10,591 nucleotides of DNA from positions 1 through 10,591 of the forward strand of contig JBHIEG010000041.1 of assembly GCA_046760505.1 (NCBI GenBank), in the 5' to 3' direction. The notes beneath the pieces were generated by a model. It saw only the letters and a list, made by a program, of their open reading frames with translations, was not told the origin of the DNA and searched no databases. The DNA comes from CAYFZR01 sp046760505 [NCBI: Candidatus Hydrothermarchaeota archaeon] (GTDB taxonomy: Archaea > CAYFZR01). This document shows positions 261 through 10,591 of the stretch, one piece after another; position 1 is the first letter of the stretch, and each line of letters starts with the position of its first letter. Made by a program: the position numbers and the translations under genes.

Positions 261-716
261 TTATTTCATTCTTAAATCCGAAATTCCCGACTCTATCAAA
301 AATTTACTGCATAATTTTAGTACCCATTCCGCCTCTTCTATTGTAGAGGAGGCCGTACCCTCATCAATTATATCATAGGGATCTATCCAAACGCCTTCGA
401 CTTCTAATCCATATTCGGACTTTACTCTTTGATCTGCAAGTTTATTCACAATCCTCCCTAATTTTGGAATCTCTTCTTTGAACCATTCTGGCATCTCTTT
501 TTCCGTCATAGCCTTTCCCAGTACTCCACTCGTATCATGACTCTTTGGAATCAAGTACCCTAGAGTTAACAAAACAGATTTTGTAGCAAATTCAACACAT
601 CTCTGGCAAGAAAAGACACAATCGGGGTATCTTCCAGCCTTGAAATCATCTATTGCAGATGAAAATGCATCTTCTGCCTTCTTTATTAGTGATACTGCTC
701 TTCTCGTATTTATCAA
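261..716 (-). CDS. HEPN domain protein, partner of the upstream MNT
   Basis: A 151-residue all-helical HEPN protein. Residues 28-50 (GRYPDCVFSCQRCVEFATKS) match the helix that in HEPN proteins reads Y-x-x-A-x-F-x-x-Q-Q-A-x-E-K-A-L-K. The segment LTLGYLIPKSHDTSGVL is the usual short loop after it, and the WVLKLCSKFL helix closes the fold. HEPN proteins of MNT pairs are toxins, often RNases using an R-X4-6-H motif. I see no such motif here; the only histidine is H60 in the loop. This may be a non-nucleolytic or structural HEPN subtype. The start is TTG at 716, overlapping the stop of the MNT gene (TTGA), with GGAG about 10 bases upstream. The two genes form one operon in the order MNT-HEPN. Fold assignment is good; toxic activity is uncertain. 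Confidence 0.75.
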   Translation of the reverse strand: MINTRRAVSLIKKAEDAFSSAIDDFKAGRYPDCVFSCQRCVEFATKSVLLTLGYLIPKSHDTSGVLGKAMTEKEMPEWFKEEIPKLGRIVNKLADQRVKSEYGLEVEGVWIDPYDIIDEGTASSTIEEAEWVLKLCSKFLIESGISDLRMK

Positions 717-1165
717 AGTTCTATTTCTCCTGCTCTCTTCATTTTGGGTTTAAGATTCCAGTAAATCGTTCCGTCAGGAAGTTTTTCTTTTTTTGCTCCC
801 AATTCTTCCAATTTTCTCCTTACTTCTTCTAATTTTTTCTTCATGAATTCTCCTCGATCATATAGGATCTGACCTTCAGAAACCATGTCAAGGTAGAAGG
901 GTTGCGTAACCTTCGCCTCTTTTCTTGTTAGAAATATTGGAGAGATTGTTATTCCATGTTTTAGGTTAAACACACTCACGATTTCGGAGGTAAGTTCAGA
1001 TCTGATCATTTGATTCTCTGGAAGATTATCTAAAACGACCAAAAGGTCTATATCGCTATCCCATGTATGCTTATCCGTAGTGTACGAGCCAAACAATACA
1101 ACAGAAACCAGATCGCTCCCAAAATTCCTTCTCAAAAGCCCTATAAATTTGTTGATTAATTCCAT
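713..1165 (-). CDS. MNT-type minimal nucleotidyltransferase
   Basis: A 150-residue pol-beta superfamily nucleotidyltransferase. G26-S27 and the metal-binding D38-x-D40 (FGSYTTDKHTWDSDIDLLVV) are clear. The C-terminal part (LYDRGEFMKKKLEEVRRKLE, then LPDGTIYWNLKP) is the coiled-coil and W-x-L-K-P tail common in archaeal members of this type. In related pairs the MNT modifies or binds the HEPN protein and acts as antitoxin. The third acidic residue expected on the following strand is not obvious: this strand reads GITISPIFLT, with serine and proline where Asp is usual. Catalysis may therefore be weakened, or another residue used. It sits directly upstream of and overlaps the HEPN gene. A TATA-like box about 25 bases ahead of the ATG suggests a leaderless transcript. 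Confidence 0.85.
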   Translation of the reverse strand: MELINKFIGLLRRNFGSDLVSVVLFGSYTTDKHTWDSDIDLLVVLDNLPENQMIRSELTSEIVSVFNLKHGITISPIFLTRKEAKVTQPFYLDMVSEGQILYDRGEFMKKKLEEVRRKLEELGAKKEKLPDGTIYWNLKPKMKRAGEIEL

Positions 1166-1212: not shown

Positions 1213-1626
1213 TTACATCATATCCATCAGGATTTGTTTTTCTAGCGGTTTGAAGTCCAGATAGTCTCTCCATACCTCTTCAATAAAATTGAATCTTCTT
1301 TCTTCGTCTCTGCTAAGTATAACCTCTCCTTTCGTAATCTCGTATTTTAATCCTAGTGGAGCGTAGTTTAATACTTTTACATCTACTGGAAACCTGATAC
1401 TTTTTTCTAGAATAATTGAGAGATCTATTTCATAATCAAGGCAATTTTCTTTCTTAACTTTCTCTTCATCTACGAATACTGCTATGTCTATATCTCTGAA
1501 TCCATAATCTTCGAGAAAACTTCCATGGATGTAGGCGAATATTATTTCATCTCTTTTTTCAATAAGATCCCTTAGGCTATTCTTTATTTTCTTCATCTTG
1601 TTTTTTGAAACATGAATTCTTTTCAT
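1213..1626 (-). CDS. mntA: MntA-like nucleotidyltransferase antitoxin, partner broken
   Basis: A 137-residue MNT protein with all three catalytic elements visible: G35-S36 (YIHGSFLED), D45-x-D47 (FRDIDIAVFVD) and D82 (FPVDVKVLN). The last element is the strand that carries the third carboxylate. The LGLKYEITKGEVILSRDEER segment is typical of the MntA group that pairs with HepT (DUF86) toxins. MntA AMPylates HepT to silence it. Here the gene immediately upstream on the same strand is a HepT stub of 51 codons that cannot make a complete toxin, so this antitoxin looks orphaned. The start is the ATG at 1626, with GGAG about 10 bases upstream and a 30-base gap from the stub's stop. It shares only the general fold with the other MNT gene in this window. 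Confidence 0.85.
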   Translation of the reverse strand: MKRIHVSKNKMKKIKNSLRDLIEKRDEIIFAYIHGSFLEDYGFRDIDIAVFVDEEKVKKENCLDYEIDLSIILEKSIRFPVDVKVLNYAPLGLKYEITKGEVILSRDEERRFNFIEEVWRDYLDFKPLEKQILMDMM

Positions 1627-1850: not shown

Positions 1851-2270
1851 TTATTCAACTAAAGGTGGTTCTAAGCGTGTTATAAAGTTTATACGATCGA
1901 AATGCCTATCGAATGAATATATCTCCCTTATCTTATACTTCTGCATAGTTAGACTATTTAGTGCATCTACATAATCGACGCCTGTTTTAGTAGCAAGTTT
2001 TACCGCATCTAGTGGAAAAAAATCTCCTGGAGTATCGAGTATCTTCAGACCTTTAAGTTCAAAAATTGCCTCTATTAGCTCTTTTATTCTACTCATTTTC
2101 CAGTTGACTGTCTCTAATACCCAAACGATTTCAGCTATAATGATACTTGAAGTTGCACATCGTTCTTTTCCTTCCTCAACCCTTTCAATGAGCGCGCTTG
2201 ATCTTCGATATTTATCCTTAGGCTTGCCTAGCATTTTGTATAAGAACAGGTTTGTGTCAATGAATCTCAT
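1851..2270 (-). CDS. vapC: VapC-type PIN-domain toxin ribonuclease
   Basis: A 139-residue PIN domain. The acidic site is complete: D5 in FIDTN, E47 in IIAEIVWVLE, D102 in VDYVDALN (D99 is nearby) and D121 in IYSFDRHFDRI, with D125 following. This matches the Mg-dependent RNases of VapBC modules, which cleave tRNA or rRNA when freed from VapB. Length is normal for the family. The ATG overlaps the vapB stop by one base (TAATG), so the two are translationally coupled, antitoxin first. The protein is cytoplasmic, with no signal or membrane segment. Nothing suggests inactivation, unlike the HepT module next door. The target RNA cannot be predicted from the sequence. Confidence 0.92.
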   Translation of the reverse strand: MRFIDTNLFLYKMLGKPKDKYRRSSALIERVEEGKERCATSSIIIAEIVWVLETVNWKMSRIKELIEAIFELKGLKILDTPGDFFPLDAVKLATKTGVDYVDALNSLTMQKYKIREIYSFDRHFDRINFITRLEPPLVE

Positions 2271-2536
2271 TATTCTAGATCCATCAATCGCTTTGAAGCG
2301 ATTAATTTAGTTATCATGTGTTGGAGCTCAACAGCATCGATTTCTAAGTCTTTTAGAGAGCAATCCAATGTTTCCGAAGGTTTGAGCTCTTTTCCTGCTT
2401 TTTTCATAAATATTTCTCCATTTCTTATGTCAAAAATTATTTTGTCTCCGATTCGAAGCTTCATTCTTTCTCTGATACTTTTTGGAATCGTTATTTGGTA
2501 CTTGGAAGTTACCTTACTAGTCTCCAAAAATATCAC
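2270..2536 (-). CDS. vapB: VapB antitoxin, AbrB-fold DNA-binding protein
   Basis: Up to 88 residues. The N-terminal AbrB domain is clear (SKVTSKYQITIPKSIRERM, then LRIGDKIIFDIRNGEIFMKK), with a C-terminal toxin-binding tail (roughly residues 50-88) rich in charged residues. It should neutralise the VapC encoded just downstream and, with it, repress the shared promoter. The GTG at 2536 is the longest start. However, a GGTGAT ribosome site lies 5 bases before a TTG at 2525-2527, and family members usually begin M-x-x-S-K-V-T-S-K. The real start is therefore quite possibly that TTG, giving 85 residues (2270-2527). It is transcribed divergently from the wecC-type gene across 113 bp. Confidence 0.9.
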   Translation of the reverse strand: MIFLETSKVTSKYQITIPKSIRERMKLRIGDKIIFDIRNGEIFMKKAGKELKPSETLDCSLKDLEIDAVELQHMITKLIASKRLMDLE

Positions 2537-2649: not shown

Positions 2650-3939
2650 ATGAAAATGAAAAAGATCTGCGTCTTTGGATTAGGATACGTTGGATTACCC
2701 ACGGCAAGCATGCTTGCTACCCATGGATTCGAAGTTCTAGGAGTAGAGATCGATGAAAAAATAATAGAGTGTATAAACAGTGGAAACGCTCATATTGAAG
2801 AACCTGGTTTAAATACTTTGGTTAAGGCTGCTATCTTATCAAAAAAACTCAAGGCATCCAATAAACCGAGCGAAGCAGATGCATTCATGATATGCGTCCC
2901 TACGCCACTGGGTCCTGACAAAAAATCAGATTTAAGTTACGTTAAATCCGCTGCAAGATCAGCCATTCCTTATTTAAGAAAAGAGAACCTTGTCATCCTT
3001 GAGTCTACGGTTCCTCCTAAAACTACCGAAGAAGTTTTGGTTCCTATACTGAGAGAATCCGGACTTGAAATCGGCTCAGAATTGTACGTAGCTTATTGTC
3101 CTGAAAGGGTGATTCCGGGAAGAATAATTGTAGAAATGGTTGAAAATGACAGAATAATTGGAGGAATAAATGAAAAATCAGCATTGATGGCAAAAGAAAT
3201 ATATCAGACTTTTGTAGAAGGAGATATATTTATAACCGATGCTACAACGGCAGAATTTGTGAAATTAATGGAAAATACGTATAGAGATGTTAACATTGCT
3301 CTTGCAAACGAATTTGCTAAAATAGCTGAGAAAATCCATGTTAATGTATGGAATGCAATAGAATTGGCAAACAAACATCCGAGAGTAAATATTCATAAGC
3401 CAGGACCTGGCGTAGGAGGACATTGTATTCCTATCGACCCATGGTTTGTTGTAGAAAAATTTCCCCAAGCAGAGATGATCAAATTGTCTCGGAACATCAA
3501 CGATGAAATGATTTACTATGTATTTGATATGATAAAAGAAACTATTGGAAAAGAAAAAAGAAACATAACTATTTTTGGAGTTGCCTACAAAGGAAACATC
3601 GATGACACAAGAGGATCTCCTGCTAAGAGATTGATCGATATTTTGCTGAGAAAAAATTATAGTGTAAAGATATATGATCCTTTGGTGCGAAAATTTGAAT
3701 TTGAAATCAATGGCTTAGCCGATTCTGTGAAAAACTCGGATTGCATAGTTGTTTTAGCAGATCACGATGAATTTAAAAGAATAAAACTGGAGGAGATAAA
3801 GAAGATTGGCAAGTTAATGAGCGATAAAAATATTATAGATACCAGAAACTGCCTTGATCATGAAATTTGGAAATTAGCAGGGTTTAATGTTAGAATATTG
3901 GGCTCAGGGAAAAGCATAAACTCTGAGAAGTCTCCTTAA
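2650..3939 (+). CDS. wecC: UDP-N-acetyl-D-mannosamine dehydrogenase (WecC family)
   Basis: A 429-residue nucleotide-sugar dehydrogenase that oxidises UDP-ManNAc to UDP-ManNAcA with two NAD+, supplying an acidic sugar for surface glycans or archaeal N-glycosylation. Visible in order are the Rossmann motif G10-x-G12-Y-V-G15, the ICVPTPLGPD turn, ESTVPPKTTEE, YCPERVIPGR (typical of WecC/WbpA-type rather than UDP-glucose dehydrogenases), the LMENTYRDVNIALANE central helix, the active-site loop GPGVGGHCIPIDPWF with catalytic C259, and a C-terminal UDP-binding Rossmann half (GVAYKGNIDDTRGSPA). Length is full. The ATG at 2650 is chosen; ATG 2656 is the only later option before the Rossmann strand. 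It stands alone: no UDP-GlcNAc 2-epimerase or glycosyltransferase is adjacent. Family assignment is strong; the exact substrate is inferred. Confidence 0.88.
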   Translation: MKMKKICVFGLGYVGLPTASMLATHGFEVLGVEIDEKIIECINSGNAHIEEPGLNTLVKAAILSKKLKASNKPSEADAFMICVPTPLGPDKKSDLSYVKSAARSAIPYLRKENLVILESTVPPKTTEEVLVPILRESGLEIGSELYVAYCPERVIPGRIIVEMVENDRIIGGINEKSALMAKEIYQTFVEGDIFITDATTAEFVKLMENTYRDVNIALANEFAKIAEKIHVNVWNAIELANKHPRVNIHKPGPGVGGHCIPIDPWFVVEKFPQAEMIKLSRNINDEMIYYVFDMIKETIGKEKRNITIFGVAYKGNIDDTRGSPAKRLIDILLRKNYSVKIYDPLVRKFEFEINGLADSVKNSDCIVVLADHDEFKRIKLEEIKKIGKLMSDKNIIDTRNCLDHEIWKLAGFNVRILGSGKSINSEKSP

Positions 3940-4047: not shown

Positions 4048-5454
4048 ATGAGAGGAGATGTGGGCTTTACCCATGGGATAGAAAAAGAGATCCAAGTAGT
4101 AAAAAAAGATGGCACGCTAGAACAAGATAAAGAGGATAAAGCCATCAGAGATTTTGAAAACATAATGAAATACGTTCCTGATAAGTATAAAGAAATCATA
4201 AATCTTCCTGGAAGTAAGAAAAAAGAAGGATACAGGCAAATATGGCGAGATCAGGGATGGCCAACCCAGTTGGAGATATCCACAAGACCCTGTTTCGATT
4301 TTGTATCTCTTAGAAGTGACTTAGAGAATCTATCTACTATTGTCAGCAAGGCTTGTAAGAAAGCAGATCTATCATTGATCGCGAGTGGGGCAAATCCTAT
4401 ATCTGAGCCTGAAGTGGGAGAGTACTTCGGAGAACACCATCATATAGGTATAGCAAGTGATGAGGAGAAAATATATGTTTATAATATGCTGAGGTGTTTT
4501 ACAGGAGAACTTATTGCCCTTACTGTAAATTCTCCCGTAAGAAAAGGAAGAGCATATACACAAAAAAGTTATAGAATAGGTAACAATCCTGCTGTAGGAC
4601 CTCCCCAAGGGGTTCCATACTTAAGGGAACTGACGGAAGAAGACTTTGGGGCAGATCCAAGACAATTAGATATTACTCCATTTTCCAATTATCCTACGGT
4701 GGAGATAAGGTTCTTTGATGTTCAAACATCCGTGTGCAGAAGCATTGGACTAGCAATAATATTACAGGCTCTGGCTCTAAAGGCAAGAAGATACCTGTAT
4801 AAACGTAAGGAAATACCTGAGATCTCCCAAGATATTATAGAACACAACAGAACTTATGGAATTAGAGCAGGATTAGATGCTGTATTCAGATCGGATAAAG
4901 ATATAGAAAACAGGTTTGCATACCATGGGAAAGGCATAACCAGATTGAGGGCGAGAGAAGCCCTGCATCATATGCTTGAGTTTATTAGACCAGAGATAGG
5001 GGAGTTAACAAAGAATCTATCACAAGATATGATTAAAAAATCTTTAAACCCTATATTTGCGAGTATTTACCCTAAAAATACAACAAAAGACGTGAGAAAT
5101 CAGCAGGGAGGTACATTGGCAGACTGGCAACTCACCCTCCTAAACAATGGCATAGATCATTTGATCGAAGAATTGGCAAATTGGACGTTAAAATCCTCTA
5201 AATTTGGAGTAGATCCCCTTCTGGTAGATAAAGATCCATCTAGAATATTGATGGATTATTTGGGTGTTGCAAAGAAAGAGCTCAGATTCCAGCCCGTGAA
5301 GTTACTCACACCAAAAGAGGTCAAATCAACAAAAGTAAAAAGAGTATACGAAGGAATAGTGGTTGAGCCCCCCAAGGGAGGGCCCATCAAGATTTTTGAC
5401 GTCAGGCCATATCGCTGGACGCTGAGGGTAACTAGAATAAGGCAACTGAGCTGA
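4048..5454 (+). CDS. GCS2-family carboxylate-amine (glutamate-cysteine ligase-like) ligase
   Basis: A 468-residue member of the GCS2 family, whose known members join an amine to a carboxylate (for example glutamate plus cysteine) using ATP. Core motifs are present: THGIEKEIQVV with metal/substrate E12 and E14; EISTRPC (77-82); GEHHHIGIA (H130-H132); LTVNSPVRKGRAY (159-170); and YPTVEIRFFDVQTSVCRS (215-232). The protein is about 100 residues longer than YbdK-type members of about 370. There is a lysine-rich insertion at residues 23-68 between the first and second motifs, and a basic tail from about 415. The gene is single, with its own candidate promoter, and ends base to base against the opposite-strand vWA gene. 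The actual substrate pair is not predictable: gamma-glutamylcysteine synthesis is possible, but so is another amide or peptide product. Confidence 0.8.
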   Translation: MRGDVGFTHGIEKEIQVVKKDGTLEQDKEDKAIRDFENIMKYVPDKYKEIINLPGSKKKEGYRQIWRDQGWPTQLEISTRPCFDFVSLRSDLENLSTIVSKACKKADLSLIASGANPISEPEVGEYFGEHHHIGIASDEEKIYVYNMLRCFTGELIALTVNSPVRKGRAYTQKSYRIGNNPAVGPPQGVPYLRELTEEDFGADPRQLDITPFSNYPTVEIRFFDVQTSVCRSIGLAIILQALALKARRYLYKRKEIPEISQDIIEHNRTYGIRAGLDAVFRSDKDIENRFAYHGKGITRLRAREALHHMLEFIRPEIGELTKNLSQDMIKKSLNPIFASIYPKNTTKDVRNQQGGTLADWQLTLLNNGIDHLIEELANWTLKSSKFGVDPLLVDKDPSRILMDYLGVAKKELRFQPVKLLTPKEVKSTKVKRVYEGIVVEPPKGGPIKIFDVRPYRWTLRVTRIRQLS

Positions 5455-6780
5455 CTATTCCTCTTTTTCCTCCTCAACCTCTTCTTCTTCCTCGACCTCT
5501 TCTTCTATTTCATCCTCTAACTCAGCCTCTTCTACAACTTCGACTTCTTCGACCTCTTCCTCTATTTCTTCCTCTGCTGGGGCCTCTGCTTCTTCCTCTA
5601 CCGTGACCTCTTTTTCAACTACAGGTACCCTGGGTCCTACGGTTATCGTAATTCTTTCTCCCATATCTTTGAAAAGTCTTCTGAGTTCTTCAGCATCAGT
5701 TCCGACATACATGGCTGCATTTGTGAGTTCTGAAATCTTTTGTAGTAACGGAATATCAACCTTCCTTGTTGCCTTAACATCTATGCTGCCATCTTCTTTT
5801 CTTTTAATATCGCCTATTGCGACCGTATAGATGAATATCCCTTTTTCTTGTGCTTTTTTTACAGCATCTAGGGGATGAACCTCGCTACCGTATTCAACGC
5901 CGTCCGTGATGAGAACTATGGATTTGAAGGAATCTTCCTTCCCTTCTCTCTCAAATATGTCCACTCCTGCCAAGATAGCATCTCCCATGGCAGTTAATCC
6001 ACCCAGACCCTCTTCCTTTGCGTTCAATAGATAGTCCTTTAACATTGGAAGGGTATCTTCGGTAACTCTGAATAGCATCCTGTTTTCGGTATCTCTTATT
6101 GCTATGGGCTTGTCGGCATAGAGTATGAATCCAACGTGATCTATTTTTCCCTGAATAGCCTTTGATTCGACGAATTGCTCAGCTGCTGCGATAGCAGCGT
6201 CCAATCTATTTTCGATTCCTTTCTCGAGATCTTTATAATCGTCGGTTATCATACTCGTGGAGAAATCTATGCAGATAACCGTATCTGCTACCTCAGGCTG
6301 TGTTGTAACTAAGAACTCAGTGTCTGGAAGCGGTATAGCTACTGCATCGCCACAATCCGGCTCAGTACTATCTAGCTGCACCTTTATATCTTCAGGGAGA
6401 ACCACAAACTGATTCTTAAGGAAAGGTCTCTCCCTCAAAATTTCGTACAAAGATGGTAACATGTTCACTTTCTTTCCATCTAATGCTGTGGCAGTAGATA
6501 TGTATCCTCTTTCGATCTCAACCGTCTTTTCAGCCTTGTAGACTTGTACTTCGTCTCCTTCATCAAGTAACCCGAGAACGTCTAGTATATCTGCGCCCAG
6601 TCCGATTTCTTTCTCCGAGACGTCACCTGGCTTTGCCTTGTATACTGCTTTTCCTCCTGGAGACTCAGCTATTACATAATCTCCCTCGCTTATTCCCAGA
6701 TCTTCCATGGTTGCTTGGTTGAGATATGCCTCTGGTTTGTACAACAGTTCTCTGAATATCTTTACATTAAGAATCTTCAT
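5455..6780 (-). CDS. Cdc48-N-like / vWA protein with long acidic tail
   Basis: 441 residues; last gene of the four-gene operon. Residues 1-85 resemble the Cdc48 N-terminal double-psi barrel (QATMEDLGISEGDYVIAE ... LLDEGDEVQVYKAE). Residues about 105-165 resemble the second Cdc48-N beta domain (ILRERPFLKNQFVVL ... QLDSTEPDCGDAVAIPLPDT). A vWA domain follows (about 167-380) with a complete MIDAS: D172-F-S174-T-S176, T263 (GGLTAMGDA) and D293 (LITDGVEYG). Residues 390-441 are an acidic tail with 32 glutamates in 52 positions, possibly disordered or coiled. vWA-MIDAS domains bind ligands through a divalent metal, so a scaffold or adaptor role is likely. No signal peptide or membrane segment is seen, so it should be cytoplasmic. 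Translation should be strong: AAGGAGGTGA lies 4-5 bases before the ATG. The partner and substrate are unknown. Confidence 0.85.
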   Translation of the reverse strand: MKILNVKIFRELLYKPEAYLNQATMEDLGISEGDYVIAESPGGKAVYKAKPGDVSEKEIGLGADILDVLGLLDEGDEVQVYKAEKTVEIERGYISTATALDGKKVNMLPSLYEILRERPFLKNQFVVLPEDIKVQLDSTEPDCGDAVAIPLPDTEFLVTTQPEVADTVICIDFSTSMITDDYKDLEKGIENRLDAAIAAAEQFVESKAIQGKIDHVGFILYADKPIAIRDTENRMLFRVTEDTLPMLKDYLLNAKEEGLGGLTAMGDAILAGVDIFEREGKEDSFKSIVLITDGVEYGSEVHPLDAVKKAQEKGIFIYTVAIGDIKRKEDGSIDVKATRKVDIPLLQKISELTNAAMYVGTDAEELRRLFKDMGERITITVGPRVPVVEKEVTVEEEAEAPAEEEIEEEVEEVEVVEEAELEDEIEEEVEEEEEVEEEKEE

Positions 6781-6784
6781 GCTT

Positions 6785-6794
6785 TCACCTCCTT
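6785..6794 (-). promoter_or_regulatory. Near-perfect Shine-Dalgarno for the last operon gene
   Basis: The minus strand reads AAGGAGGTGA 4 bases before the ATG at 6780, a full-length match to the archaeal 16S 3' end. It touches the stop codon of the amidohydrolase gene. It fixes the start of the acidic-tailed vWA protein and suggests this is the most efficiently translated cistron of the operon. Confidence 0.8.
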
Positions 6795-8080
6795 CAATTT
6801 TCGTAAACTACCCGCTTTACCGTATAGTCTTTATTTAACGTGCTCGCTATTCGTTGAGCTATCTTTACGAATATTTCATCCAAGGATTCTGTTTTGTTTG
6901 TTGGTTTATAGGATAGAGCACAGTCTTTTACTAAAACTACATCATCTTCTTCAATAATCTTGCTTGATCTTATTGTATCTTCTTTTATACGAATAGACGG
7001 GACAAACACATACAGTTTTTTTTCCTTCTCCTTTGCTATAATGCTTACAGGTAAATCAAAGTTTTTATCAGTCGCATAAAGGTAAACATCTTTTGAAAAA
7101 TTGTGATTTTCCTTATCGATTGGATTTATCAGAGGTTCGACTTTACCTAAGACATTGTAAATCAGACTTGTCCATTTTCTCTTTATAAGATGAGCAGGAT
7201 CTTTGTCTACGGAGTTGATTACAGCAACTGCCCCGACGTAATTATTTTCTAAGCCCTTGATTTCTTTCCTTGTCTTTGCTATCATTTGTTTTGTGTATCC
7301 TTCTCTAGTGGTGAGATTGGCGATATTTTCGCCAAGGATCATCTTTTTATCCTCTTCAGATAGAAGATCGGTCTCCTGGATAAATTTTTTAGTTGTAAGG
7401 ATGTTTTTAGCCATCCCATAAGGCAAATCTGTTCCAAAAAGGATATTTGAGGGAGGCACGTGCTCAACAATGTTTTTTACGAATTCTATTCTATTTATGG
7501 AGAGTTCCAAATAGACAATGTCAGAAAACTTCAATGCAAGATCTATAGCCTTTTCAGTTCCCATTCCCTGAGAAAAAGAGTGTCCAAGAATAATTTTAGC
7601 ACCGGGGACGCTTTCCTCTACAGAATAAAGCAAAGATTCAAAATCCTCTGGCATATATCTTTGTTCTCCATTTACCCCGTAGTTAACTTCCGTATGGAAT
7701 ATCACTGGAACACTGAGGAGGCGGGCGTTTAATATTAGGTAGAGAACTTCATTACTGTCTACTCTGAATTTTTGCATTCTGGGGTGTAGTTTAACCCCCC
7801 TTAAGTTGAGGAATTTTACGCATCTTTGCAGTTCACTTATTGCATTCACGTGCTTAGGATCTATTCTACAGAAGCCAATAAACCTATCTTGAAACATGGA
7901 AATTTCTCGGCTAAGCTTGTCATTTGCCTCTCTGAAACACGATCCAGCATCTATTTCATCCATGGGAAATACTACAGCCCTATCGATGCCTAAACTCCTA
8001 AGGGCGAAGGATAGGGTTTTCGCACTCATTTGAGAGCCATCTTTGTCATTGCCTATGTGGGTATGAGCATCTATAATCAT
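6794..8080 (-). CDS. Amidohydrolase fused to an unrecognised C-terminal domain
   Basis: 428 residues. Residues 1-260 form a metal-dependent amidohydrolase-2/TIM-barrel hydrolase: D4-A-H6-T-H8 at the N terminus, GVKLHP (95-100), FHTE with H129, ILGHS with H167, and LFGTDLPYG with D218. This is the usual H-x-H / H / H / D metal site, apparently intact. After EENIANL-type helices, residues about 275-428 form a second mixed alpha/beta region (YVGAVAVINSV ... VYLYATDKNFDLPVSIIAKE ... KLYVFVPSIRIKED) that I do not recognise. The family is large (deacetylases, decarboxylases, lactonases), so the substrate is open. The ATG overlaps the preceding stop (ATGA), implying coupled translation and a role shared with the Cdc48-N-like/vWA proteins on both sides. 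It carries no signal peptide. Confidence 0.82.
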   Translation of the reverse strand: MIIDAHTHIGNDKDGSQMSAKTLSFALRSLGIDRAVVFPMDEIDAGSCFREANDKLSREISMFQDRFIGFCRIDPKHVNAISELQRCVKFLNLRGVKLHPRMQKFRVDSNEVLYLILNARLLSVPVIFHTEVNYGVNGEQRYMPEDFESLLYSVEESVPGAKIILGHSFSQGMGTEKAIDLALKFSDIVYLELSINRIEFVKNIVEHVPPSNILFGTDLPYGMAKNILTTKKFIQETDLLSEEDKKMILGENIANLTTREGYTKQMIAKTRKEIKGLENNYVGAVAVINSVDKDPAHLIKRKWTSLIYNVLGKVEPLINPIDKENHNFSKDVYLYATDKNFDLPVSIIAKEKEKKLYVFVPSIRIKEDTIRSSKIIEEDDVVLVKDCALSYKPTNKTESLDEIFVKIAQRIASTLNKDYTVKRVVYEN

Positions 8081-8778
8081 TTAACTAGCCTCTCCAACAA
8101 TAGATTTACAGGCTTTGATCCTTCCACAGGCAAGTATGGTAATTGTAATTCAATCAAGTCATTTCCATCGTAGAAAAACACAGTCATCTCTTCTATTATA
8201 CTTCTGAGAGGAGATGAGTTGAGTATTAAATCTATCAATTCTTTTGTCTCCTCTAATTTTTCTTCAGTTATATCACAAACCAAGTAGAGATTTATTTTCT
8301 TATACTCCCCGGATACTGTTCTGATAGATGTCTTTTCATCGATTTTTGCTACCTCAAGCGGTAAGTTTTCTCGCCAGAGTTCTTGAACAAATGCTTTGAC
8401 ATCAATGACTGAAATCTTCTCTCCTTCCTTGAGGACTTTATTGCATAACGTTTTCCCATACTCCTTCTCATTAAATTTAGCTAAATCCGAGTTTTTTTCT
8501 ATCCTTAAGATTACCTCACTCGCTGTTGGTATATCAGCCATTCGATATGCTTCCAAAAGATCTCCCTCTAGCACAGAGGCCGAATCAGCAATGTCCAGTC
8601 CTAGTATAATCTCATTAGCTTCTAGATCCTCATTAAGTTCTACGGTGGCGAGTGTCTCGGTAAATCCTTTGACTAATACATTATCTCCCTCAGAAGATCC
8701 TAGAGCCAAGATACTCTCCTTGTTTAGCATTACTTTACCATCAATATTTTCAAGAATTTTTTTTACCAGAAATTCCAT
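8077..8778 (-). CDS. Cdc48-N-like protein with a half vWA-like domain, no MIDAS
   Basis: 233 residues from the ATG at 8778, chosen because GAGGT lies 5-6 bases upstream; an in-frame GTG at 8799 would add 7 residues and overlap the previous gene. The N-terminal part (GKVMLNKESILALGSSEGDN ... SASVLEGDLLEAY) has the double-psi-barrel pattern of its neighbours. A second beta region follows (about 95-160). The C-terminal part (INLYLVCDITEEKLEETKEL, then MTVFFYDGNDLIEL) lines up with the first strands and helix of the neighbours' vWA domains (DVVLVIDKSNSMEGKRIEEA; IGVVAYSTDVEEIV). The D-x-S-x-S motif has become D-I-T-E-E, and the domain stops before the T and D metal loops. It probably arose by duplication and decay, or is a specialised non-metal partner. 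Function is unknown. Confidence 0.75.
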   Translation of the reverse strand: MEFLVKKILENIDGKVMLNKESILALGSSEGDNVLVKGFTETLATVELNEDLEANEIILGLDIADSASVLEGDLLEAYRMADIPTASEVILRIEKNSDLAKFNEKEYGKTLCNKVLKEGEKISVIDVKAFVQELWRENLPLEVAKIDEKTSIRTVSGEYKKINLYLVCDITEEKLEETKELIDLILNSSPLRSIIEEMTVFFYDGNDLIELQLPYLPVEGSKPVNLLLERLVK

Positions 8779-8788
8779 CTCTTTACCT

Positions 8789-9898
8789 CTATGCAGCACG
8801 AATCTTAAGTGTTTGGGCGAATTCTTTCCAGAGTTTTCTCAACTCATCAGGAGTTGCCTTGTAGACGCTACCTCCAGTTGGTTCAGCGAGGTATTTAAGA
8901 AAATCTATATCTGCGTCGCCAACTCCTACTCCAAAAAGGATTATACCCTGATCTTTTGCCATCGATGCTACCTTGTCTACGTCAGTCACATCGTAGTTTT
9001 TGCTGGCGTTTTCGTATCCGTCCGTAAGCAAGATTATTTCCTTTATGTTCTCTCCTTGGGATTTTTTTAGCATATCTATCGCATAGGCAGTAGCATCCAG
9101 TAGAGCGGTTATTCCTTCTGGCTTAATTCCCTTTATTTTTTCCTCGAAAAACTCCATCTTGTCTACATGCGCCGGGGTCATGGGAACGATTTCTTCTACG
9201 TCTGTGCTGTACGCAACAACACCTATATGCTGTACTAATCTTGCTGCACTTACTTTTGTCTTGAAAAACTCTATCGCTGCTTTTTTAGCTTCCTCAATCC
9301 TCTTTCCTTCCATACTGTTTGATTTGTCTATTACAAGTACAACATCCGATCCCACGTATCCACTTACGAGCGATATGTTTACCTCTATCCCTGTATCATC
9401 GGTTACCATACCCACCACGTTATTGTCTAAAGAAGGGGCGGACTTTTCAACCTGAATGTTGATGTCTTCCTGTACGATTAATATCTGATCTTTGATCAAG
9501 GGTCTACTCGAGAGAATTTTCTTAAGCAATCCCCTCCGGGTAAATGCATTTATCTTATCCACATCTATTCCGCTGCCACCGGGTCTAATAAGGAGGTCTT
9601 TCAACTCTACTACTGTCTCAGGAACCTCGACAACTACCTCATCTGCCTCCATTATTCCCAGAGAGTCCTGCAAATCTGTCCCTAATAACACTTCTCCTAC
9701 TTCCGCATAGATTTCGGTATAGGGGTCAGGATCTTTGGAAACAGCAATCGCGGCACTCGAATACTGGGGAGTCTTTAATATTATTGGGCTCATCTCTCCG
9801 ATATTAAGCCGCTCCATATCCTCTTTATTCATAACTACCGTCTGATCTCTTCTTATACCTCTATCACCAACAACAAAAGTCTCCACTTTCAACCCCAT
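8789..9898 (-). CDS. Cdc48-N-like / vWA domain protein, first gene of operon
   Basis: 369 residues. Residues 1-95 are a divergent double-psi-barrel unit (VVMNKEDMERLNIGEMSPII ... LQDSLGIMEADEVVVEVPE). Residues about 120-178 match the second beta domain of the acidic-tailed paralogue (LKKILSSRPLIKDQILIVQE vs LYEILRERPFLKNQFVVLPE). The vWA domain (185-366) has a full MIDAS: D191-K-S193-N-S195, T264 (EGITALLDA) and D293 (LLTDGYENA), plus the closing GGSVYKATPDELRKLWKEF helix. It lacks the acidic tail. It is therefore a metal-binding protein-interaction module, cytoplasmic by lack of signal or membrane segments. The ATG sits about 25 bases after a TATA-like box, so the operon mRNA is probably leaderless. 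The next gene starts 10 bases after the stop. A role with an AAA+ ATPase is inference only. Confidence 0.87.
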   Translation of the reverse strand: MGLKVETFVVGDRGIRRDQTVVMNKEDMERLNIGEMSPIILKTPQYSSAAIAVSKDPDPYTEIYAEVGEVLLGTDLQDSLGIMEADEVVVEVPETVVELKDLLIRPGGSGIDVDKINAFTRRGLLKKILSSRPLIKDQILIVQEDINIQVEKSAPSLDNNVVGMVTDDTGIEVNISLVSGYVGSDVVLVIDKSNSMEGKRIEEAKKAAIEFFKTKVSAARLVQHIGVVAYSTDVEEIVPMTPAHVDKMEFFEEKIKGIKPEGITALLDATAYAIDMLKKSQGENIKEIILLTDGYENASKNYDVTDVDKVASMAKDQGIILFGVGVGDADIDFLKYLAEPTGGSVYKATPDELRKLWKEFAQTLKIRAA

Positions 9899-9916
9899 TT
9901 TTTATGTGTTGCGATA

Positions 9917-9924
9917 CTTAAATA
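9917..9924 (-). promoter_or_regulatory. TATA-like box of the vWA/amidohydrolase operon
   Basis: The minus strand reads ACAAAGA then TATTTAAG: a BRE-like A-rich stretch plus a TATA-like box, centred 23-25 bases before the ATG at 9898. This is the distance expected for leaderless initiation at the start codon, and no ribosome site is present in the short gap. Confidence 0.55.
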
Positions 9925-10010
9925 TCTTTGTGGATGATAAATGAAAATAATAAAAGAAGCAGAAAAAATCTCGTATTACGTAAAAGTTGATAATTTCGTG
10001 ATGTATCATT

Positions 10011-10018
10011 ATATATAG
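10011..10018 (+). promoter_or_regulatory. Candidate TATA box for the PC4-like gene (distal)
   Basis: ATATATAG, predicting initiation near 10040 and a leader of about 50 bases. A second candidate (ATAATATAG at 10042-10050) would start transcription near 10071, just ahead of the ribosome site. The sequence does not decide between them. Confidence 0.35.
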
Positions 10019-10088
10019 ACAGAATTGTGCAAAAAAGTAAAATAATATAGATTCAATTACTTTTTGTTGTATTTTGGAAGTGATGAAT

Positions 10089-10322
10089 ATGAAATGGGAA
10101 GAAATCTTTTCAGAGGGTATTAAGACGAGTGAGGGAGTGGAAATAAGGGTTAGTGTTGCTGAAAATCCAAGAGCAGGTATCGTTCTTGGGGTAAGAAAGT
10201 GGGTCCGAAGAGGCGACACAATGATACCTACGAGAGATGGAGCTGCGTTTCCTGCTACCAAAGAAACGGTGGACACATTAATTGAAATATTGCAGAAGAC
10301 GAAGGAGTTCTTGCCTGATTAG
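10089..10322 (+). CDS. Small PC4/p15-like nucleic-acid-binding protein
   Basis: 77 residues from the ATG at 10089, chosen because GGAAGTGAT (10076-10084), close to the ideal GGAGGTGAT, ends 4 bases upstream. Upstream in-frame TTG, GTG and ATG codons overlap that site and are less likely. The layout is strand-rich with a closing helix: GVEIRVSVAEN (16-26), IVLGVRKWVRRGDTMIPTRD (31-50), then the TVDTLIEILQKTKEFL helix. The R-K-W-x-x-x-G-D-x-x-x-P-T-R-x-G run resembles the substrate-binding strands of PC4/YdbC-type single-stranded-DNA-binding coactivators (I-R-K-W ... P-T-x-K-G). Family assignment is by pattern only. It is divergent from the vWA operon across 190 bp, so it might regulate that operon, but nothing proves this. 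Confidence 0.7.
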   Translation: MKWEEIFSEGIKTSEGVEIRVSVAENPRAGIVLGVRKWVRRGDTMIPTRDGAAFPATKETVDTLIEILQKTKEFLPD

Positions 10323-10329
10323 GCAGTAA

Positions 10330-10353
10330 AATTACTCATCTAATTACTCATCT
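10330..10353. repeat. 12-bp perfect tandem duplication
   Basis: AATTACTCATCT occurs twice in a row (10330-10341, 10342-10353), followed by AAT of a third partial copy, 8 bases after the stop of the PC4-like gene. It may be simple slippage or a binding-site pair. Confidence 0.7.
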
Positions 10354-10374: not shown

Positions 10375-10510
10375 GACCAAAGGAACCTCCACCACCTTTT
10401 ATAAAGGTGGGACAAAAGTACTACTTCCTTCGGAGGTAGAACATCTCCCATACATTTTGCTTTGCTTTTTTCGAGGAGTTCTATTTGAGATGTTGAATTG
10501 CTTGCAATTC
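10375..10510. repeat. Structured repeat unit A (palindrome plus hairpins)
   Basis: Core elements, in order: a palindrome CCACCTTT-TAT-AAAGGTGG (10392-10410); a 10-base gap; hairpin CTACTTCC-TTC-GGAGGTAG (10421-10439, one G-T pair); arms AACATCTC (10440-10447) and GAGATGTT (10487-10494) enclosing 39 bases; and hairpin GAATTG-CTTG-CAATTC (10495-10510). The stretch 10375-10386 (GACCAAAGGAAC) matches the flank after the palindrome of unit B at 11 of 12 bases and looks like the trace of an earlier unit. There is no credible open frame. The palindrome centre TTTATAAA could also be a two-way TATA box. Strand is undetermined; a structured RNA, a MITE-like repeat and a regulatory array are all possible. 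Confidence 0.6.
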
Positions 10511-10527
10511 GACCTAATGATCTCCCT

Positions 10528-10591
10528 CCACCTTTTATAAAGGTGGATCAAAGGAACTACCTCTTCGAGATAGAGCAGCTCTTTTGGAGAT
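10528..10591. repeat. Structured repeat unit B, cut by window end
   Basis: The same 19-bp palindrome recurs exactly (10528-10546). It is followed after the same 10-base gap by a diverged hairpin CTACCTC-TTC-GAGATAG (10557-10573, one mismatch), then AGCAGCTC where unit A has AACATCTC. The spacing from unit A is 136 bp. The window ends before the rest of the unit. Confidence 0.6.

What the first reader, a model, noticed from the sequence alone, without database searches (positions are those of the whole stretch)
5455..9898. Four-gene operon built on Cdc48-N-like modules, vWA domains and an amidohydrolase
Three neighbouring proteins each begin with what reads as the Cdc48/VCP N-terminal module: double-psi barrel, then a beta domain with the R-P-x-x-K-x-Q/D-x-x-x-L pattern. 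Two carry intact vWA-MIDAS domains and one a cut-down vWA. They share tight, overlapping junctions (10-base gap, ATGA overlap, stop touching the Shine-Dalgarno) with a metal amidohydrolase. MoxR-vWA systems pair vWA proteins with an AAA+ ATPase. Here the ATPase is absent and its N-domain is instead fused to vWA. This suggests an adaptor or substrate-selection complex that borrows an ATPase (Cdc48 or proteasomal) from elsewhere and delivers something to, or controls, the hydrolase. I do not know of a described system with this composition.
Basis: partly seen in the sequence, partly recalled or inferred. Interest (0 to 1): 0.8.

Follow-up and report, generated by a model that had tools for sequence, protein, structure and literature searches.

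The report
Cdc48-like head fused to vWA adaptors
Four tightly packed genes, probably from an archaeon, make two binding proteins that carry what looks like the recognition head of the protein-unfolding machine Cdc48 joined to a metal-dependent gripping domain, a third protein with a related head, and a metal-dependent hydrolase; no unfolding motor is encoded beside them in the stretch we have, and what the set does is not known.

Summary
On the minus strand, vWA1 (9898-8789), a 233-aa protein (8778-8077), an amidohydrolase (8080-6794) and vWA2 (6780-5455) are packed with a 10-base gap, a 4-base overlap and a 13-base gap. The three non-enzyme proteins share a homologous N-terminal module. In vWA2 its first ~84 residues fold with good confidence into a double-psi barrel whose best structural matches are Cdc48/p97/VAT N-domains (Z 14-15). 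Support for the second N-subdomain is weak and partly negative, and the 233-aa protein lacks the R-P motif. MIDAS motifs are intact in vWA1 and vWA2. The 'cut-down vWA' of the 233-aa protein found no support in three sequence comparisons. The amidohydrolase keeps its metal ligands and has a 163-aa C-terminal part without a match in Pfam or PDB sequences. No full-length relative was found in the searches I could make, and no host genome was held, so conservation of the operon is untested. Best mechanism (inference): an ATPase-free, Cdc48-N/vWA hetero-oligomeric adaptor that holds or conditions the hydrolase. No paper seen describes this combination.

The parts
8789..9898 (-). vWA1, 369 aa: Cdc48-N-like module + vWA with intact MIDAS; first gene of the operon
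   Evidence: ORF; VWA E=1.1e-22; MIDAS
9359..9898 (-). N-terminal module of vWA1 (residues 1-180)
   Evidence: homologous to vWA2 module, z 16.4, 0 of 500 shuffles; PF02359 E=0.055 best family, PF02933 E=0.87 in place, both under cut-off
8855..9346 (-). vWA domain of vWA1 (residues 185-348)
   Evidence: PF00092
8077..8778 (-). third paralogue, 233 aa from the likely start at 8778 (ORF opens at 8799): Cdc48-N-like barrel by homology; C-terminal ~88 aa of unknown fold, no MIDAS
   Evidence: z 7.3 and 6.4 to the other N modules; PF02359 E=0.014 best family, under cut-off; CDC48 model TIGR01243 E=0.011, far under cut-off; vWA remnant not supported
6794..8080 (-). amidohydrolase, 428 aa
   Evidence: PF04909 E=2e-13, 51.2 bits against cut-off 26.4; H6, H8, H129, H167, D218 present
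6797..7285 (-). C-terminal extension of the amidohydrolase (residues 266-428), no known family
   Evidence: 0 Pfam families at E<=10; 0 PDB sequences at E<=10; no structure predicted
5455..6780 (-). vWA2, 441 aa: Cdc48-N-like module + vWA with intact MIDAS + acidic tail; last gene
   Evidence: ORF; VWA E=1.5e-11; MIDAS
6286..6780 (-). N-terminal module of vWA2 (residues 1-165); residues 1-84 modelled as a double-psi barrel
   Evidence: PF02359 E=2.9e-5, 24.6 bits under cut-off 35.1; model; Foldseek/VIA
5641..6282 (-). vWA domain of vWA2 (residues 167-380; PF00092 matches 167-329)
   Evidence: PF00092; weak full-length model matched vWA folds
5458..5655 (-). acidic C-terminal tail of vWA2 (residues 376-441; 34 of 66 are D/E, 4 are K/R)
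9462..9505 (-). RPxxKDQ-x5-ED motif of vWA1
6386..6429 (-). RPxxKNQ-x5-ED motif of vWA2
9917..9925 (-). TATA-like box ATATTTAAG about 23 bases before the vWA1 ATG; suggests an archaeal promoter and a leaderless transcript
   Evidence: sequence; reading as an archaeal promoter is inference

Best explanation
The operon makes an ATPase-free adaptor complex around a metal-dependent hydrolase. Three co-transcribed paralogues carry a Cdc48-type N-domain barrel (by predicted structure for vWA2, by homology for the other two). I infer that they form a hetero-oligomer. vWA1 and vWA2 present two MIDAS metal sites (motifs shown) that would grip an acidic residue of a client, as the vWA protein CbbO is thought to do on Rubisco; the third subunit has no MIDAS and would be structural. 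The Cdc48-type barrel would be the recognition surface for a peptide, a tag or a cofactor, as in Cdc48 N and Ufd1. The likeliest client is the amidohydrolase encoded between them, held or conditioned (metal loading, activation or turnover) through its private C-terminal part. If energy is needed, it would come from a Cdc48- or MoxR-type ATPase encoded elsewhere. Shown: gene order, junctions, MIDAS motifs, metal ligands. Predicted: barrel fold. Inferred: co-transcription, complex formation, client, any ATPase.
For: Overlapping junctions. N-module homology across three genes. Barrel of Cdc48 type: mean pLDDT 72-92 per ten-residue block over residues 1-80; VIA Z 14.9 to the VAT barrel 7dbo (82 residues, 1.5 A) and 14.8 to p97-N 5x4l (91 residues, 1.9 A); 262 Foldseek matches at E<=0.001, p97-N on top. 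PF02359 is the best Pfam family for the N module of all three proteins, though under the cut-off. Profile of the three modules against VAT plus a CDC48A fragment: hhalign 30.0, best of 100 column shuffles 21.2, with RPFLK on VAT RRPMLE. Intact MIDAS and metal ligands, and no membrane-like segment: highest 19-residue mean hydropathy at most 1.6 in the four proteins. Precedent: CbbO MIDAS mutants keep ATPase activity but lose or strongly lose Rubisco activation; [quoted passage not shown] The UFD1 UT3 domain binds ubiquitin (PMC5559722, passages); that it has the Cdc48-N fold is recalled.
Against: No partner ATPase in the window. No relatives fetched, so co-conservation is untested. All Cdc48 family scores are below curated cut-offs, and another double-psi family, Molydop_binding, scores nearly as well for vWA2 (E=1e-4, 22.8 bits against cut-off 26.8). 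As single sequences only vWA2 (26.0) beat the shuffles in hhalign; vWA1 (13.4) and the third protein (16.5) did not, and the three-row profile against VAT alone scored only 16.2. Over the whole 165-residue module the Foldseek TM-scores to p97-N are about 0.5 with rmsd near 10 A, since the second half is not modelled. The Nc part alone fails its shuffle control. The third protein lacks the R-P motif. Being in one operon does not show a complex. PF04909 enzymes need no chaperone that I know of (recalled).
Confidence: 0.35

Rival explanations
1. A static vWA scaffold without any ATPase: the N-vWA proteins pair like other vWA scaffold pairs (TFIIH p34/p44, Ku70/80, Sec23/24, ArnAB) and simply assemble or localise the hydrolase or another client.
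For: Three paralogues with one lacking the MIDAS look like subunits of an obligate hetero-oligomer (inference). The weak full-length model matched TFIIH p34/p44 (5o85, 6nmi), Rpn10 (8jtl) and ArnAB (8s05) among vWA folds, and NHEJ (Ku-containing) complexes and Sec23/24 lower down in Foldseek. No AAA+ family was found in the window proteins scanned.
Against: Those matches are generic vWA matches from a model of mean pLDDT 39.7 and say nothing of assembly. The Cdc48-type barrel is otherwise typical of unfoldase systems.
Confidence: 0.3
2. An ordinary MoxR/vWA-type operon cut by the window edge: the AAA+ ATPase gene lies upstream of base 10591 or elsewhere in the genome, and the Cdc48-type barrel is only a new N-terminal dressing.
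For: The window has only 693 bases before vWA1. vWA proteins are often encoded beside MoxR ATPases (PMC5437159, passages), and other N-terminal fusions to such vWA co-chaperones are known, e.g. a metallopeptidase in jumbo phages (PMC7824862, passages).
Against: vWA1 has its own promoter-like box right before its start, and a divergent ORF at 10074-10322 lies upstream (no family found; an overlapping minus-strand ORF 9902-10276 was not examined).
Confidence: 0.15
3. Chance neighbours: a small-molecule amidohydrolase gene slipped between unrelated binding-protein genes, with no functional link.
For: No relatives were found to show that the arrangement is kept.
Against: The 4-base overlap and the Shine-Dalgarno running out of a stop codon suggest translational coupling; paralogues lie on both sides of the enzyme.
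Confidence: 0.15
4. A tag-and-untag system: the convergent GCS2-like carboxylate-amine ligase (4048-5454) makes an amide link that the N-vWA proteins read and the amidohydrolase cuts, by analogy with pupylation.
For: GCS2-type ligase with the GhExE signature (GIEKE at residue 10); its stop codon abuts the vWA2 stop. Pup ligase belongs to the same superfamily (PMC2588565, passages).
Against: The ligase is on the other strand, not in the operon. PF04909 enzymes known to me act on small molecules (recalled). No small tag-like gene was noticed; none was systematically sought.
Confidence: 0.04

Closest known systems
Cdc48 / p97 / VAT N-domain (PF02359 + PF02933)
   Same: First-half barrel of vWA2 superposes at Z 14-15 and 1.2-1.9 A in 49 of 50 rows shown; RPFLK on VAT RRPMLE in hhalign
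   Different: No AAA+ domains follow; a vWA domain takes their place in two of the three; family scores are below curated cut-offs
MoxR/vWA chaperone pairs (CbbQ-CbbO, NirQ-NorD, RavA-ViaA; jumbo-phage peptidase-vWA)
   Same: vWA-MIDAS protein encoded beside a possible client enzyme; N-terminal fusions to the vWA co-chaperone are known (PMC5437159 and PMC7824862, passages)
   Different: No ATPase gene in the window; Cdc48-type N-domain; three paralogues
Ufd1 (UT3 domain) and other N-domain-like cofactors
   Same: A Cdc48-N-type fold without AAA+ domains; viral Ufd1-like proteins are ranks 2 and 3 in BFVD
   Different: Ufd1 has no vWA domain (recalled); Cdc48-binding motifs were not looked for here
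Halo_adaptin Vps4-like ATPase with a VAT-type N-domain
   Same: Re-use of the VAT-type N-domain outside Cdc48 in archaea (PMC11188069, passages)
   Different: There the N-domain is still fused to an AAA+ ATPase; here it is not
Amidohydro_2 enzymes (ACMSD, resorcylate decarboxylase and the like)
   Same: Catalytic core over cut-off; 3cjp and 3nur best PDB sequences
   Different: 163-aa C-terminal part with no match; embedded in a vWA operon

Membership tests
Cdc48/p97 N-domain | Nn double-psi beta barrel | tested here: met
   predicted structure of vWA2, residues 1-93: Z 14.9 to VAT 7dbo, 14.8 to p97-N; the 50 Foldseek rows shown are p97/Cdc48-family entries. The other two proteins by sequence homology only
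Cdc48/p97 N-domain | Score above Pfam CDC48_N / CDC48_2 curated cut-offs | tested here: not met
   best 24.6 against 35.1 (PF02359) and 13.4 against 22.4 (PF02933)
Cdc48/p97 N-domain | Nc second subdomain | tested here: inconclusive
   RP motif in register with VAT in hhalign of the whole module and in one of three MAFFT modes; alone below shuffles; pLDDT <50; PF02933 E=0.063 in vWA1, none in vWA2
Cdc48-family ATPase | AAA+ domains after the N-domain | tested here: not met
   No AAA family listed for any of the four proteins at E<=10; vWA or unknown sequence follows
MoxR/vWA system | vWA protein with intact MIDAS | tested here: met
MoxR/vWA system | Adjacent MoxR AAA+ gene | tested here: inconclusive
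   none among the window proteins scanned, but only 693 bases lie upstream and no genome is held
Ufd1-like Cdc48 cofactor | Motif that binds the Cdc48 N-domain (SHP, UBX, VIM) | not tested
   no motif search was made
20S proteasome activator ATPase/adaptor | C-terminal HbYX motif (recalled) | tested here: not met
   the four C-termini LKIRAA, LERLVK, RVVYEN, EEEKEE lack a penultimate tyrosine
Amidohydro_2 (PF04909) | Family score and metal ligands (HxH, two later His, Asp) | tested here: met
   51.2 bits against 26.4; H6, H8, H129, H167, D218; role of each residue recalled

The most novel reading that the evidence does not exclude
Some archaea have their own Cdc48 cofactors built by taking Cdc48's N-domain, dropping the motor and adding a MIDAS vWA domain. 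Three such subunits form a recognition platform that intercepts Cdc48 clients or tags and couples them to a dedicated metal hydrolase, an archaeal counterpart in logic to Ufd1-Npl4 with a bound processing enzyme.
Probability: 0.15. Interest if true: 0.85.

Novelty: new variant of a known kind. Interest (0 to 1): 0.52.

Why it matters
Archaeal Cdc48 is usually treated as a single ATPase with few known cofactors (recalled). A three-paralogue set of Cdc48-N proteins, two of them fused to vWA and tied to one enzyme, would give a concrete, testable candidate for an archaeal adaptor layer, and would join two protein-remodelling worlds, Cdc48 recognition and MoxR-vWA enzyme conditioning, in one polypeptide.

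Tried and rejected
Relatives. Genome contigs: with vWA1, 27 pattern matches, 0 confirmed; with a strict RPxxK[DN]Q-x5-ED DNA pattern, 0 stretches. An iid base model expects about 0.3 to 5 chance matches there, so this speaks only against the strict motif. Viral contigs: searches (sugar dehydrogenase; vWA1+vWA2; GCS2-like; N modules; amidohydrolase) confirmed 0; one search gave one locus, L001, whose match lies in an unrelated-looking 1003-aa open frame. tblastn: vWA1 in plasmids 68 records, vWA2 in plasmids 80, vWA1 in phages 40, 0 of them covering 80% of the query; the rows listed (20, 12 and 20) match the vWA region, one vWA2 row reaching back to residue 119. Amidohydrolase in plasmids: 67 records, 0 covering 80%. 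CDC48A fragment in plasmids: no match.

Rejected: vWA remnant in the third protein. Link between the amidohydrolase C-terminus and the vWA domain: z 3.5, 3 of 500 shuffles, one of twelve comparisons, but hhalign 17.2 lies within its shuffles, up to 18.2. Membrane or secreted proteins. PADLOC (E<=0.1): 0 families for the four operon proteins. PHROGs (E<=0.01): four families of unknown function on the vWA domain of vWA1, 0 for the other three. PDB search of the vWA1 N module: 0 matches at E<=10; of the third protein: 3 at E 0.88-2. Rfam: 0 in the window. Full-length vWA2 model too poor to use alone.

Papers. Ten searches. Six paired Cdc48-N or double-psi or Cdc48 terms with vWA or von Willebrand terms (16, 18, 35, 36, 72, 88); two of them held no paper. 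Of the papers listed by 18, 36 and 88 I read passages found by terms in nine (PMC7824862; PMC10067837, PMC11090510, PMC5437159; PMC7226565, PMC11188069, PMC6393860, PMC3482391, PMC5682000) and none of those passages describes a Cdc48-N-vWA fusion; PMC10743472 was seen only in the listing, one of the six papers was not listed, and no paper listed held 'von Willebrand'. Other papers cited were read as passages only.
Full report
What is there. The window holds, on the minus strand, vWA1 (9898-8789, 369 aa), a third gene (8778-8077, 233 aa; the ORF opens at 8799), an amidohydrolase (8080-6794, 428 aa) and vWA2 (6780-5455, 441 aa). Junctions: 10-base gap, 4-base overlap, 13-base gap; the third gene is preceded by GAGGT and vWA2 by AGGAGGTGA running out of the amidohydrolase stop. 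Upstream of vWA1 lies ATATTTAAG about 23 bases before the ATG, which I read as an archaeal TATA box with a leaderless start (sequence; inference). The vWA2 stop codon abuts the stop codon of a convergent GCS2-like gene.

The shared N-terminal module. The two other non-enzyme proteins are 32% and 24-26% identical to the reference paralogue in the alignments. Local alignment scores of the N modules exceed all 500 shuffles in each of three comparisons (z 16.4, 7.3, 6.4). PF02359 (CDC48_N) is the top Pfam family for each module, with E 2.9e-5 (vWA2), 0.014 (third protein) and 0.055 (vWA1), all under the curated cut-off; Molydop_binding, another double-psi family, follows for vWA2 at E=1e-4 and vWA1 at 0.11. 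The third protein also matches the NCBIfam CDC48 model at E=0.011, residues 23-191 on 19-189. The N-module profile picks, out of 177,635 PDB sequences, 16 at E<=10: twelve are Cdc48/VCP N-domains or designed double-psi barrels (that these designs start from VCP-type barrels is recalled), two are FwdD (another double-psi barrel) and two look unrelated; none is significant alone, the best being E=0.015. A profile-profile comparison with VAT plus a CDC48A fragment scores 30.0, against at most 21.2 in 100 column shuffles, and runs through to the R-P motif, which lands on VAT RRPMLE. Against VAT alone the score is only 16.2, and of the single sequences only vWA2 stands out (26.0; vWA1 13.4, third protein 16.5).

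Structure. With only three sequences, AlphaFold2 gave a poor full-length vWA2 model (mean pLDDT 39.7); in Foldseek its 12 matches at E<=0.001 are ten vWA-type entries and two p97 N-D1 entries. The N module alone folded well over residues 1-80 (block means 72-92) and badly after 85. The 50 rows shown by Foldseek are p97/Cdc48-family entries (262 matches at E<=0.001), with TM-scores near 0.5 and rmsd near 10 A over the whole module. VIA-align gives Z 15.4 to 7di0, 14.9 to the VAT barrel 7dbo and 14.8 to p97-N; of the 50 titles shown, 46 name p97/VCP/CDC48 or a double-psi barrel, the other four being 5e7p (an AAA ATPase), 9ofv, 7y53 and 7y4w (large complexes). VIA re-examines only Foldseek's own best chains, so other double-psi families are not excluded. 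The second subdomain rests on the R-P motif register (hhalign of the whole module; one of three MAFFT modes) and a sub-threshold PF02933 match in vWA1; by itself it failed its shuffle control.

The rest of the proteins. vWA1 and vWA2 have intact MIDAS motifs. The last 66 residues of vWA2 hold 34 acidic and 4 basic residues. The amidohydrolase is over the PF04909 cut-off and has H6, H8, H129, H167 and D218. Its last 163 residues match nothing in Pfam or PDB sequences at E<=10.

How it may work. The closest precedents for a vWA protein next to an enzyme are CbbO, NorD and ViaA. In CbbO, MIDAS mutants keep ATPase activity but mostly lose Rubisco activation, and an acidic Rubisco residue is implicated (PMC5437159, passages). 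vWA co-chaperones with other N-terminal fusions exist, such as the metallopeptidase-vWA of jumbo phages, beside a MoxR ATPase (PMC7824862, passages). For the N module, Cdc48 N-domains bind cofactors (PMC5543420, passages), the UFD1 UT3 domain binds ubiquitin (PMC5559722, passages), and a VAT-type N-domain is called a substrate recognition domain in an archaeal Vps4-like ATPase (PMC11188069, passages). Put together, I favour a hetero-oligomeric, motor-free adaptor that recognises something through its barrels and grips a client, most simply the amidohydrolase, through its MIDAS sites. Whether a motor is borrowed is open. The C-termini do not carry the proteasome-docking HbYX ending (recalled motif). 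A static scaffold is nearly as likely.

Limits. No genome is held for the window, and neither scan of genome contigs gave a relative. Viral contigs gave none, and plasmids and phages gave only vWA-region or amidohydrolase-core matches in the rows listed. The scarcity of relatives may mean a rare lineage, or that the pattern-based scans are narrow.

Verdict. A real and unusual domain combination, not described in the papers I could find, with a plausible but unproven mechanism. New variant of a known kind (vWA adaptor systems). Interest 0.52.

Noticed in passing
window 4048-5454 (+): GCS2-like carboxylate-amine ligase, 468 aa, with GIEKE matching the GhExE signature; its stop abuts the vWA2 stop; weak to its family (PF04107 20.9 bits against cut-off 21); 18 plasmid records match, 0 over 80% of it.
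   Followed up: partly
window 261-1165 (-): HEPN protein (PF05168) overlapping a nucleotidyltransferase (PF01909): a HEPN-MNT type pair; the nucleotidyltransferase matches PADLOC PDC-S09.
   Followed up: no
window 1213-1626 (-): Second nucleotidyltransferase-like gene (Polbeta PF18765, E=1.1e-16).
   Followed up: no
window 1851-2536 (-): PIN-domain protein preceded by a MazE/AbrB-type protein: toxin-antitoxin-like pair.
   Followed up: no
window 2650-3939 (+): Nucleotide sugar dehydrogenase, UDP-ManNAc dehydrogenase type.
   Followed up: no
window 10074-10322 (+): 82-aa ORF divergent from vWA1 with no Pfam or NCBIfam match; a 124-aa minus-strand ORF (9902-10276) overlaps it and was not examined.
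   Followed up: no
window 10392-10546: Near-palindrome CCACCTTTTATAAAGGTGG at 10392-10410 and 10528-10546, within 53-base direct repeats 136 bases apart; a 12-base tandem repeat at 10330-10353.
   Followed up: no
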